Origin: Tenggerimyces flavus
Lineage (GTDB): Bacteria; Actinomycetota; Actinomycetes; Propionibacteriales; Actinopolymorphaceae
Length of the DNA: 64,000 nucleotides
Direction: 5' to 3'
NCBI RefSeq assembly: GCF_016907715.1
Contig: NZ_JAFBCM010000001.1
Coordinates: forward strand, 1,240,001-1,304,000
Positions 16,549 to 26,351 of the stretch are shown here, piece after piece. Under the pieces are notes generated by a model. That model was not told the origin of the DNA. It worked only from the letters and a program-made list of their open reading frames with translations, and searched no databases. A program made the position numbers and the translations under genes. Position 1 is the first letter of the stretch; each line of letters starts with the position of its first letter.

Positions 16549-16623
16549 GTGATCATGAACGTGATCATGAAGGCTGAGCCGTCGCATGTGCCGGTCCCGC
16601 TTCATGATCACGTTCATGATCAC
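16549..16623. repeat. 24-bp perfect inverted repeat built of tandem 12-mers
   Basis: The left arm (16549-16572) is two tandem 12-mers, GTGATCATGAAC then GTGATCATGAAG. The right arm (16600-16623) is its exact reverse complement, with a 27-base spacer. It therefore presents four copies of TGATCATGAA. It starts about 90 bases after the DUF5926 stop and ends 138 bases before the next gene. It could be a bidirectional terminator or a multi-site operator; the regular 12-bp repeat within each arm favours protein binding or a repeat family. Bases 16458-16548 show nothing else. Confidence 0.8.
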
Positions 16624-16761
16624 GGGCAGGAGGGGTCGTCGAGGGCCAGGTCGCCCGGCATCGCTACTCGGGAATTCATCACTCATTGACTTCCGTCGAG
16701 CGTCGCAGTACTTTCGGCTCAAGAATTCAACGCCTGATGAATACTCCAAGGAGATCGACCC

Positions 16762-24264: not shown

Positions 24265-24392
24265 CGACAGTTCCTCCCAGCTTTGGCGGCCCCCATCTCT
24301 ACCTGAGCAGAACGAAAATCCGCCGAATGTCGTTCACTTCGTGCTCGCCGCTACTGCTCCTGTGCCGCTCGTCCACCGGACGGCCGCCACCC

Positions 24393-24620
24393 CGGCCCCA
24401 TCTCCGGCCGCCGCGCCGGTCGCCACCTCACCGCGGTCGCCGGCCCCATCTCCGGCCGCCGGTAGCCACCCACCCCCGGCCACAGGTCGCCACCTCATCC
24501 CCGGCCGCCACCTCATCCCCGGCCACAGGTCGCCACCTCATCCCCGGCCACAGGTCGCCACCTCATCCCGGCCACAGGTCGCCACCTCGTCCCCGGCCAC
24601 CACCTCGCCCCCGGCCGCCA
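24393..24620. repeat. GC-rich imperfect tandem array
   Basis: A 25-base unit beginning CCGGCCACAGGTCGCC occurs in full at 24476-24500, 24519-24543, about 24544-24567 and next to that, with shortened copies between and after. It is preceded by two copies of CCGGCCCCATCTCCGGCCGC. The spacing is irregular and there are no unique spacers, so it is not CRISPR. Bases 24265-24392 and 24621-24810 show no gene; the whole 24265-25097 interval is non-coding by my reading. Confidence 0.75.
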
Positions 24621-24810
24621 CGTTGCGTGCCGCCGTTGCTGCGTTCCATCCCGGCAGCCATCGCCCTCCCGTCCCTTCGACCTGTCGACCAACAGTCGCC
24701 CCTCTCCGCCATCGCCCCTTGGGGGCGATGCTGTGCTTCTGCTCGTCCTGTTGCTTTGCCCAACTGTGCTTGGGTGAAGTAGCTGGTCGGGCTGTGGCGG
24801 CGGTCGAGTG

Positions 24811-24917
24811 TGGTGGCCGGTCCGGGGCGCGTCAAGGGCGCCGCGGCGGCTTCGCAGGCGGGCAGCGTCGCTTCGCGACCGCTTTGCGGCCCTTGACTCG
24901 CCCCGGTCCGGCCACCA
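24811..24917. other. Long inverted repeat with nested hairpins upstream of the DUF222-HNH gene
   Basis: The left arm (24811-24839) and right arm (24889-24917) are 29 bases each and match in reverse complement at 27 positions. They begin TGGTGGCCGG and end with GTCAAGGGC. The 49-base interior contains GTCGC-TTC-GCGAC and CCGC-TTT-GCGG mini-hairpins, giving a branched fold. Two more palindromes follow before the gene: GGAAC-A-GTTCC, and GGCAAG-GCCTG-CTTGCC. This may be a structured non-coding RNA or a DNA recognition element tied to the nuclease gene; a terminator is the dull alternative. Confidence 0.7.
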
Positions 24918-25060
24918 GTTTCATACGCGCCGCCCCCGCCCCCCGGAACAGTTCCCCGGGCAAGGCCTGCTTGCCTTTCCGTCTGCTGCCGTGCTCGCGT
25001 CGCTGGTGGAGCCCGCGGCTTCGTGTGGTGGCGATGATGCCGGGGATTTCCCTTGCCGGG

Positions 25061-25097
25061 TTGAGCATTAGGCCGATTCGGCTGGTAGAATTGTGCT
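25061..25097 (+). promoter_or_regulatory. Promoter of the DUF222-HNH gene, leaderless
   Basis: TTGAGC at 25061-25066 and TAGAAT at 25086-25091 form -35 and -10 elements with a 19-base spacer. The -10 ends 6 bases before the ATG at 25098, so transcription should start at or next to the start codon. There is no ribosome binding site. The base composition here is more AT-rich than around it. Confidence 0.65.
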
Positions 25098-26351
25098 ATG
25101 GAATCGACCACCTGCTCGAACACCATCGACACCGCCGATGGGGTGTCGGCGTGGTCGATGACCGATGACCAACTCGCCACCGCACTCCTCGACAACCAGG
25201 CCGCCCTCCACCGGCACGAAGCCCGCCGGCTCGAGCTGATCCGCGAGGCCGACTCCCGGAACCTCGCCGTGTCGGCGGGTGCGGCGAACACCGCGCAGTG
25301 GGTTGCCGGCGTCCTTCGTGTTCCTTCGGCTGAGGCGGGTGCGATGGTGAAGCTCGCCAGCCACCTCGACGCCGAGCTTCCTGCGACCGCGCGGGCGTTA
25401 GCTGAGGGCGAGATCTCTGTTCCGCATGCGCGGGTGATCTCGCGGGTCGTGACGATGCTGCCGCCGCAGATCTCGACCCCGGAACTCCGCTCCGAGGTCG
25501 AAGCCACCCTGTTAGAGAGCGCAGCCACCTTCGACCCGAAGGTCTTGTCGAAGGTCGGGAACCATCTGTTGGAGGTCGTCGCTCCCGATCTTGCCGACCA
25601 GGTCCTGGAACTGAAGCTCAAGCAGGAAGAGGCCAGCGCCGAACGCGACCGGTTCCTGCGTATGTCCTTCGACGAGTCGTCGGGGACGTGGCGGGTCACC
25701 GCCCGGCTGCCAAAGGTGGTCGGGGAGCGCCTCAAGCTGGTTCTCGATCCGTTGGCGGCGCCGCAGCCTGGACCCGACGGGCGTGACACCCGGTTCCCCG
25801 AGCAGCGCAATGTGGATGCTTTGGACGAGGCCTGCCGCCGACTCCTGGCCGAGCGGTTGGTGCCTTCCCATGGCGGGAACCCCACCCAACTCGTCGTCAC
25901 CCTCACCAACACCGGCGGGCGGACCCTGCACACCGGGATCGAACTCTCGCGCAAACTCGTCGACCAGCTGATGTGCGAGGCGGACCTCAACTACTTGGTG
26001 AAGCCCGAGGACCAGCCCGGCAGAGTCACACTGCTGACCGACACCCAACAGCGGCTGTTCCAAGGGAAGCTCCGCCGGTTGCTCGAGCTCCGTGACGGCG
26101 GGTGCGCGTTCCCCGGGTGTGATCGCCCACCTGGTTGGTGTCACGCTCACCACCTCACCCCGTGGAGCCAGGGCGGTCCGACTACTCGGGACAACGGGGT
26201 GCTGCTCTGCGGCTACCACCACCGCCTCATCCACCAAGGCGCGTGGCAAGTCCGCATCGCACGAGACGGATTACCCGAGTTCTTACCCCCGGACTGGATC
26301 GATCGCCAGCGACGACCACTCCGCAACCGCCGCTTCGCCACGGCGTCCTGA
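25098..26351 (+). CDS. DUF222 domain-containing HNH endonuclease
   Basis: A 417-residue protein with an N-terminal DUF222 domain (about residues 15-290) and a C-terminal HNH nuclease domain. The nuclease has two zinc knuckles, CAFPGC and the later LLCGYHH, around the catalytic AHHLTPWSQGG with N near residue 363 and the closing H in HHRLIHQG. DUF222-HNH genes (the 13E12 family in mycobacteria) are highly amplified in actinobacteria and are suspected selfish or recombination-related genes. The true substrate is not known. All HNH residues are present, so it looks active. It is a single gene with its own leaderless promoter and unusual repetitive upstream DNA. Confidence 0.92.
   Translation: MESTTCSNTIDTADGVSAWSMTDDQLATALLDNQAALHRHEARRLELIREADSRNLAVSAGAANTAQWVAGVLRVPSAEAGAMVKLASHLDAELPATARALAEGEISVPHARVISRVVTMLPPQISTPELRSEVEATLLESAATFDPKVLSKVGNHLLEVVAPDLADQVLELKLKQEEASAERDRFLRMSFDESSGTWRVTARLPKVVGERLKLVLDPLAAPQPGPDGRDTRFPEQRNVDALDEACRRLLAERLVPSHGGNPTQLVVTLTNTGGRTLHTGIELSRKLVDQLMCEADLNYLVKPEDQPGRVTLLTDTQQRLFQGKLRRLLELRDGGCAFPGCDRPPGWCHAHHLTPWSQGGPTTRDNGVLLCGYHHRLIHQGAWQVRIARDGLPEFLPPDWIDRQRRPLRNRRFATAS

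What the first reader, a model, noticed from the sequence alone, without database searches (positions are those of the whole stretch)
24811..25097. Structured element just upstream of a DUF222-HNH nuclease gene
A 29-bp inverted repeat (27/29 match) encloses two perfect mini-hairpins, and two further palindromes lie between it and the gene. The gene itself seems to have a leaderless promoter (TAGAAT 6 bases before ATG), so this block is not its 5' leader and could be a separate RNA or a recognition site. DUF222-HNH genes are amplified and suspected selfish in actinobacteria. Other HNH families (IscB) are known to use adjacent structured RNAs, so a nuclease-linked RNA or target site is worth testing. 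That link is inference.
Basis: partly seen in the sequence, partly recalled or inferred. Interest (0 to 1): 0.72.

Follow-up and report, generated by a model that had tools for sequence, protein, structure and literature searches.

The report
Dispersed DNA hairpin linked to nuclease genes
The folded block in front of this nuclease gene is one of about a hundred copies of a mobile-looking DNA hairpin scattered through the genome, and nearly two dozen of the copies carry a gene of the same nuclease family, which hints at a new kind of selfish repeat-and-nuclease partnership.

Summary
The inverted repeat is real (27/29; none of 200 shuffles comes near). It is one of at least 102 copies of a structured repeat in this 8.5 Mb genome (outer-stem types: 86 A, 12 B, 4 C). 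23 copies stand just upstream of a DUF222-HNH gene, 180-183 bp away in all 22 type-A cases. Of the 27 DUF222 genes, 22 of 23 in clade A and 1 of 2 in the diverged clade B carry it; the two exceptions show clean deletions. 79 copies have no gene; 55 of 77 readable ones end in another palindrome doublet. Relatives with covarying stems occur in 6 other genomes of the order, with 1 of 39 within 2 kb of a DUF222 match, so the nuclease link is lineage-specific. Changes are nearly all two-sided with few G-U steps, which favours DNA over RNA. The genes are intact (dN/dS 0.13) and heavily gene-converted, no Y1 transposase was found, and DUF222 models as a ParB/Noc-like DNA-binding domain. Best reading: a REPIN-like repeat family with an HNH nuclease instead of a tyrosine transposase. 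Nuclease action on the repeat is inferred; hitch-hiking is a strong rival.

The parts
24796..24934 (+). outer stem of the repeat: GGCGGCG (24796-24802) with CGCCGCC (24928-24934)
   Evidence: read (I8, arms 24789-24802 / 24928-24941); the 25 bases before the hairpin diverge 0.041 among gene-bearing and 0.162 among solo copies
24811..24839 (+). left arm of the hairpin
   Evidence: first 28 bases: mean pairwise divergence 0.019 (gene-bearing) and 0.016 (solo)
24840..24866 (+). inner stem-loop A, variable in length and sequence but covarying
   Evidence: 6 of 8 pairs change on both sides, 79% of cells paired
24867..24879 (+). mini-hairpin B, GTCGC-TTC-GCGAC
   Evidence: (pairs never vary in A1)
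24879..24889 (+). mini-hairpin C, CCGC-TTT-GCGG
   Evidence: (2 of 4 pairs change on both sides)
24889..24917 (+). right arm of the hairpin
   Evidence: last 28 bases: divergence 0.023 and 0.063
24918..25044 (+). spacer shared by gene-bearing and solo copies, with the palindromes at 24941-24960 and 24959-24975; ends at GATGATGCCGGG
   Evidence: alignments; coverage (61-64 of 77 solo copies align from +120 to +220, 2 at +260)
25086..25091 (+). TAGAAT -10-like hexamer, 6 bases before the ATG
   Evidence: 22 of 22 clade-A units with a hairpin
25098..26351 (+). DUF222-HNH gene, 417 aa, one of 27 DUF222 genes of the genome
26349..26379 (+). right end of the gene-bearing unit: stop codon within a stem (TGACCGCG / CGCGGTCA); homology between units ends about here
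   Evidence: coverage falls from 22 of 22 at +1480 to 9 at +1540 and 0 at +1600

Best explanation
The block is one copy of a dispersed, structurally conserved DNA palindrome (a REPIN- or MITE-like repeat). Shown: at least 102 copies in three outer-stem types, most without a gene. One type-A lineage is joined at its 3' side to a DUF222-HNH gene; that roughly 1.6-kb unit (hairpin, spacer, gene, terminator-like stem) is present 23 times, in one of them with the hairpin cleanly deleted. A type-B hairpin is joined to a second, diverged DUF222 gene. Inferred: the DUF222 part is a ParB/Noc-like palindrome-binding domain that recognises the near-invariant arms, the HNH part nicks or cuts at or near the repeat, and repair from another copy both spreads the unit and drives gene conversion among copies. 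The gene-less copies would be non-autonomous members or targets. The hairpin would act as DNA, not as a guide or leader RNA.
For: At least 102 copies, none inside a predicted ORF among the 100 with flanks (crude ORF caller of my own). 23 of 102 have a DUF222 gene just downstream on the same strand (about 0.13 expected for random places, though copies of one unit are not independent); the distance to the ATG is 180-183 bp in 22 of 22 type-A cases and 168 bp in type B. Two nuclease clades 43-46% identical each carry their own outer-stem type. Arms diverge 0.016-0.063 against 0.115-0.251 for the spacer, as expected if something in trans recognises them. No Y1_Tnp match in this genome, while two relatives have 9 and 7. 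22 genes without internal stops, median dN/dS 0.13, linkage falling from r2 0.39 (within 5 bp) to 0.05 (over 500 bp), 0 of 500 permutations as low. AlphaFold model: residues 36-163 match ParB/Noc DNA-binding domains in all of the top 11 rows (Z 8.1-10.5, rmsd 2.1-2.7 A), repeated with the domain alone (Z 7.8-9.8, next unrelated row 4.6).
Against: Gene-bearing type-A copies form one clade (support 100/99), so 22 joint copies are one joining event. Diverged relatives of the repeat exist in 6 other genomes mostly away from DUF222 genes (1 of 39 within 2 kb, about 0.4 expected by chance). DUF222 genes of other genera lack it (0 of 76 loci). No empty site, target duplication or activity was seen. 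Foldseek gives no significant E-value for the ParB match, the profile search gives ParB entries only at E 0.03-0.4, and the aligner's own notes warn that mostly helical models can reach such Z by common arrangement. Gene conversion needs no nuclease.
Confidence: 0.42

Rival explanations
1. Hitch-hiking: the hairpin belongs to an independent repeat family, found across the order, that is moved by some other or lost agent. One copy happened to lie upstream of a DUF222 gene and was carried along when that gene multiplied. The nuclease does nothing to the hairpin.
For: The repeat exists in 6 other genomes of the order, 1 of 39 copies within 2 kb of a DUF222 match. Gene-bearing copies are one clade, drawn among gene-less ones by midpoint rooting. 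Actinopolymorpha alba, another genus of the family, carries different palindromes upstream of its DUF222 genes, and seven upstream regions of a third amplified set show none.
Against: Two diverged DUF222 clades both carry the repeat at a similar distance (168 and 180-183 bp), each with its own outer-stem type. Only 17 of 77 gene-less copies have any same-strand gene start within 300 bp, so a second chance hit on a DUF222 gene is unlikely. The arms are far better conserved than the spacer in gene-bearing copies too.
Confidence: 0.38
2. Terminator or insulator: the hairpins stop transcription, and the copy upstream of the gene shields the leaderless promoter from read-through.
For: Intergenic positions; 29 of 77 gene-less copies with flanks lie between convergent genes; strong fold on both strands.
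Against: The window's own copy has only TTT there and 48 of 102 copies have a run of three or fewer. Many copies lie between divergent or tandem genes. It does not explain dispersal or gene-bearing copies.
Confidence: 0.12
3. Structured RNA that works with the nuclease, as the omega RNA does with IscB.
For: Compensatory base changes; position beside the gene; among solved structures the best profile matches are the HNH stretch of IscB (E 1.8e-6, 42 residues).
Against: 79 of 102 copies have no DUF222 gene; compensatory changes rarely pass through a one-sided step (5 of 57 and 6 of 107 changed standard cells); no transcript evidence; matches to IscB cover the HNH stretch only; no such structure beside DUF222 genes of other genera (0 of 76 loci).
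Confidence: 0.05

Closest known systems
REPIN / REP-RAYT systems (PMC3116915, abstract and outline seen)
   Same: Dispersed extragenic palindromes predicted to form hairpins, several sequence groups in one genome, each with a specific enzyme gene nearby, described as non-autonomous mobile DNA.
   Different: The enzyme here is DUF222-HNH; no Y1_Tnp match was found in the genome. The hairpin is a 103-119-nt structure with inner hairpins. 23 copies carry the gene, where RAYTs are usually one or a few per genome (recalled).
REP13E12 / 13E12 repeat family of Mycobacterium (DUF222-HNH; PMC13061034 and PMC10589994, passages seen)
   Same: Multi-copy DUF222-HNH genes; intense gene conversion among copies (87 conversion events for REP13E12 regions in PMC13061034, which says they lack a defined function; linkage decay here).
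   Different: The passages seen mention no dispersed solo hairpin; mycobacterial copies were not examined here.
IscB with omega RNA (recalled; HNH match)
   Same: HNH nuclease domain; structured element beside the gene.
   Different: Match limited to the HNH stretch; no support for an RNA partner.
ParB/Noc/KorB DNA-binding domain
   Same: Predicted fold of DUF222 residues 36-163; entry titles include complexes with parS and with the Noc-binding site.
   Different: Predicted only; fused here to HNH.
MITEs (recalled definition)
   Same: Gene-less copies next to gene-bearing copies that share one end.
   Different: No transposase and no pattern of terminal inverted repeats with target duplication was established.

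Membership tests
REPIN / REP-RAYT | dispersed extragenic palindromes in high copy | tested here: met
   at least 102 copies; 0 of 100 inside a predicted ORF (crude caller)
REPIN / REP-RAYT | a cognate REP-associated tyrosine transposase (Y1) in the genome | tested here: not met
   0 Y1_Tnp matches in G000, while G001 and G003 have 9 and 7
REPIN / REP-RAYT | repeat types specific to enzyme types | tested here: inconclusive
   types A and B each go with one DUF222 clade; the 4 type-C copies have no DUF222 gene
DUF222-HNH (13E12-type) genes | DUF222 plus HNH above the Pfam cut-offs | tested here: met
   DUF222 122.2 bits against 24.4; HNH 26.7 against 21.4
DUF222-HNH (13E12-type) genes | multi-copy with gene conversion | tested here: met
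   27 genes; linkage decay
IscB-like RNA-guided nuclease | RuvC-like domain interrupted by HNH, with an adjacent omega RNA (recalled) | tested here: inconclusive
   profile and fold matches to IscB cover the HNH stretch only; no RNA data
Rfam RNA family | match at gathering score | tested here: not met
   0 matches in the window
ParB/Noc-type DNA-binding domain | fold of the DNA-binding domain | tested here: inconclusive
   top 11 rows, but no significant Foldseek E-value and weak profile scores
Classical IS/MITE | terminal inverted repeats and target-site duplication at an empty site | not testable with these tools
   only one genome of the genus is held

The most novel reading that the evidence does not exclude
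DUF222-HNH proteins are palindrome-binding nucleases (ParB/Noc-like domain plus HNH) that move or copy dispersed DNA hairpins, forming a transposase-free counterpart of the REP-RAYT system in which gene-bearing and gene-less hairpins form one selfish family spread by nicking and gene conversion.
Probability: 0.3. Interest if true: 0.87.

Novelty: new variant of a known kind. Interest (0 to 1): 0.62.

Why it matters
DUF222-HNH genes are highly multiplied genes of unknown purpose in actinobacteria (recalled; 14 to 28 DUF222 matches in each of six other genomes), including the 13E12 repeats of mycobacteria. No listing or passage seen states what they act on. A genome with gene-bearing and gene-less copies of one hairpin, two nuclease clades with their own hairpin types, and a predicted palindrome-binding domain gives a concrete substrate to test. 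If the link holds, it would be a repeat-mobilising system built on an HNH nuclease. If it fails, there is still a structured DNA repeat family in several genera of the order without a known mover.

Tried and rejected
Rfam and tRNA: nothing. RNA partner in the IscB manner: held unlikely for the reasons given under rivals. RAYT-driven REP: no Y1_Tnp match in the genome. Homing of the gene into a gene-less copy: the right end of gene-less copies (57-bp doublet) is not found anywhere from -2500 to +2900 of the hairpin in 0 of 23 gene-bearing copies (for the near range), so a simple insertion into a solo copy is not supported. Solo copies as decayed gene units: they share no gene sequence with the window unit and most have their own sharp right end. 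Strand bias along the chromosome, as lagging-strand movers show: none seen (p 0.16; origin unknown). Gene tree against hairpin tree as a test of co-descent: gene and hairpin distances are uncorrelated (Mantel r 0.08, p 0.24); the two halves of the gene correlate over all rows (r 0.44, p 0.0015) but not without the two most divergent rows (r -0.02), so exchange has scrambled the signal. A first tree lost 16 of 22 type-A gene rows to a too strict pattern and was redone. A general hairpin upstream of DUF222 genes elsewhere: in 69 loci outside Actinopolymorpha alba three had scores of 15 or more (15, 15, 19), against a maximum of 13 in 10 shuffles per locus, at three different places. Within the family, BLAST gave one weak match in G003 (79% over 56 bases, E 8e-6) that model R1 did not confirm. 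Fold searches: Foldseek alone gave nothing at E 0.001.

Paper searches 'DUF222', '13E12 repeat + HNH endonuclease', 'REP13E12', 'REPIN/RAYT/actinobacteria', 'palindromic/HNH endonuclease/MITE/actinobacteria', 'Actinopolymorpha + repetitive extragenic palindromic', 'DUF222 + ParB', 'Kribbella + palindromic repeat' and 'REP13E12 + homing endonuclease': no title or abstract start in the listings describes this repeat or a DUF222-ParB likeness. Of the two DUF222 + ParB papers, PMC10123090 concerns DUF2220 (passages) and PMC9674854 was not opened.

Full report
OBSERVATION. The block is as described. The arms 24811-24839 and 24889-24917 pair at 27 of 29 positions; the score of 23 is not approached in 200 dinucleotide shuffles (maximum 13). 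Two mini-hairpins lie inside and two palindromes follow. The gene is DUF222 plus HNH. TAGAAT stands 6 bases before the ATG in 22 of 22 clade-A units with a hairpin.

IT IS A DISPERSED REPEAT. BLAST of 24800-24930 against the genome gave 40 near-full copies (only 40 of 170 candidates were scored). A covariance model R1 of 39 distinct copies found about a hundred places, many on both strands (150 of 17,973 candidates scored). With one further place I count 102, a lower bound. By outer stem they are 86 type A, 12 type B and 4 type C (and the pattern each misfile one type-A copy under B). None of the 100 with enough flank lies inside a predicted ORF (my own crude ORF caller).

LINK TO DUF222-HNH IN THIS GENOME. 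The genome has 27 DUF222 genes. Clade A, 76-94% identical to the window protein, has 23; 22 have the hairpin, 180-183 bp before the ATG. In the 23rd (L053) the flanks are intact and the hairpin alone is missing. Clade B, 43-46% identical, has two genes: L055 carries a type-B hairpin 168 bp upstream, and in L054 it is missing between short direct repeats (my reading). The last two genes (L056, L057) show none. So 23 of 102 copies carry a gene and 79 do not. The 22 type-A gene-bearing copies form a single clade among 86 (support 100/99), so they count as one joining event; type B is a second.

TWO KINDS OF COPIES. Gene-bearing units are alike from some 50-100 bases before the hairpin (21 and 16 of 22) to just past the stop codon, where a stem follows. 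Gene-less copies share the hairpin and some 130 bp of spacer, then part company near the GATGA-GCCGGG motif; 55 of 77 have a 57-bp doublet of the palindrome GAATGAAGG...CCTTCATTC there. No such doublet lies between -2500 and +2900 in any of the 23 gene-bearing copies, and 69 of its 74 clusters in 1.21 Mb of sampled sequence lie within 500 bp of a hairpin (the sample is centred on hairpins and DUF222 genes, about 113 kb of it within 500 bp of a hairpin).

DNA RATHER THAN RNA. In 39 type-A copies 8 pairs change on both sides, 52 cells against 15.8 in shuffles, with 5 one-sided cells. Across types A, B, C and seven copies from five other genomes (alignment A4), 22 of 39 pairs change on both sides, 101 cells against 31.3 shuffled and at most 21 for any slid version, with 6 one-sided cells. 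RNA helices usually pass through G-U (recalled); the near absence of that step suggests selection or copying as DNA (inference). 'Further pair types' does not exceed the shuffles (500 of 500 and 167 of 500 as high). The arms diverge 0.016-0.063 while the spacer diverges 0.115-0.251.

BEYOND THIS GENOME. R1 found nothing at E 0.1 in 7 other genomes of the family (BLAST had one weak match in G003) and matches at E 1e-5 in 5 of 195 other genomes of the order, with only 19 candidates scored per genome. The broader model R2 found 39 places in 6 of 12 genomes chosen partly for having hits. One of the 39 lies within 2 kb of a DUF222 match (633 bp, G009), against about 0.4 expected. R2 found none in 76 loci of DUF222 genes from other genera. 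In Actinopolymorpha alba (G001, matched to named contigs through), of 15 DUF222 units aligned, 8 carry two other palindromes upstream, 5 carry one and 2 carry none; matches to these palindromes alone occur elsewhere in that genome and in G000. In a third genome (G003, 17 matches) the seven upstream regions read show no such hairpin. So palindromes joined to DUF222 genes recur in the family, but the palindrome differs and the join is not universal.

THE PROTEIN. The 33-sequence AlphaFold model has mean pLDDT 82. Residues 36-163 match the DNA-binding domain of ParB and Noc in all of the top 11 rows of the second-look aligner (Z 8.1-10.5). The domain predicted alone (pLDDT 86) repeats this (Z 7.8-9.8, next unrelated row 4.6). 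Foldseek E-values are not significant, the sequence profile gives ParB entries at E 0.03-0.4, and the aligner warns that helical models can score so by common arrangement; this is a fold-level suggestion. The HNH part resembles IscB, McrA and other HNH nucleases.

EVOLUTION OF THE UNITS. 22 clade-A genes have no internal stops, median dN/dS 0.13 and dS 0.47; linkage falls from r2 0.39 within 5 bp to 0.05 beyond 500 bp (240 sites, 20 rows, two divergent rows left out; 0 of 500 permutations as low). I read this as short-tract exchange among dispersed copies. [quoted passage not shown]

HOW IT MOST LIKELY WORKS. Shown: dispersal, structure, two arrangements, two gene clades with their own hairpin types, linkage decay, no Y1_Tnp match. 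Inferred: the ParB-like domain binds the arms, HNH nicks, and repair copies the unit. The main rival is hitch-hiking on an unrelated repeat; I put the two close together (0.42 and 0.38). A terminator role gains a little from T runs after the right arm in 54 of 102 copies, and I raised it from 0.10 to 0.12.

VERDICT. New variant of a known kind (REPIN-like repeats), interest 0.62.

Noticed in passing
window 16549-16624: A copy of another dispersed palindrome (TTCATGATCAC / GTGATCATGAA), of the kind found upstream of DUF222 genes in Actinopolymorpha alba and beside many gene-less hairpins here.
   Followed up: partly
L314-L333 (Actinopolymorpha alba regions): DUF222 paralogues exist with two, one or no palindromes upstream (8, 5 and 2 of 15 aligned), which gives natural filled and unfilled forms for the GGGGCACCC...GGGTGCCCC palindrome.
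   Followed up: partly
L059, L065, L073; also L063: Three gene-bearing units share a nearly identical downstream sequence starting right at the stop codon, and in a fourth the frame runs on into a coiled-coil-like tail; it looks like an insertion sequence landing at the gene's end (label recalled).
   Followed up: no
G017, G025, G034, G098 (loci L361-L366): The repeat occurs in at least six inverted pairs about 0.45-1.1 kb apart; in the three pairs read, the DNA between has open frames in many readings, as GC-rich DNA does, but no gene I would trust.
   Followed up: partly
window 24361-24610: Short near-tandem GC-rich units (GGCCACAGGTCGCCACCTCATCCCC) upstream of the hairpin; loosely similar stretches precede some other gene-bearing copies.
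   Followed up: no
copies at 6512592, 3487227, 7932346 of G000: The spacer module after the hairpin appears to be repeated in tandem in three gene-less copies.
   Followed up: no
G009:C1:7548366-7548457 (L368): The one strong copy of the repeat in G009 lies 633 bp from a weak DUF222 match on the same strand (25.3 bits); one of 39, so possibly chance.
   Followed up: partly
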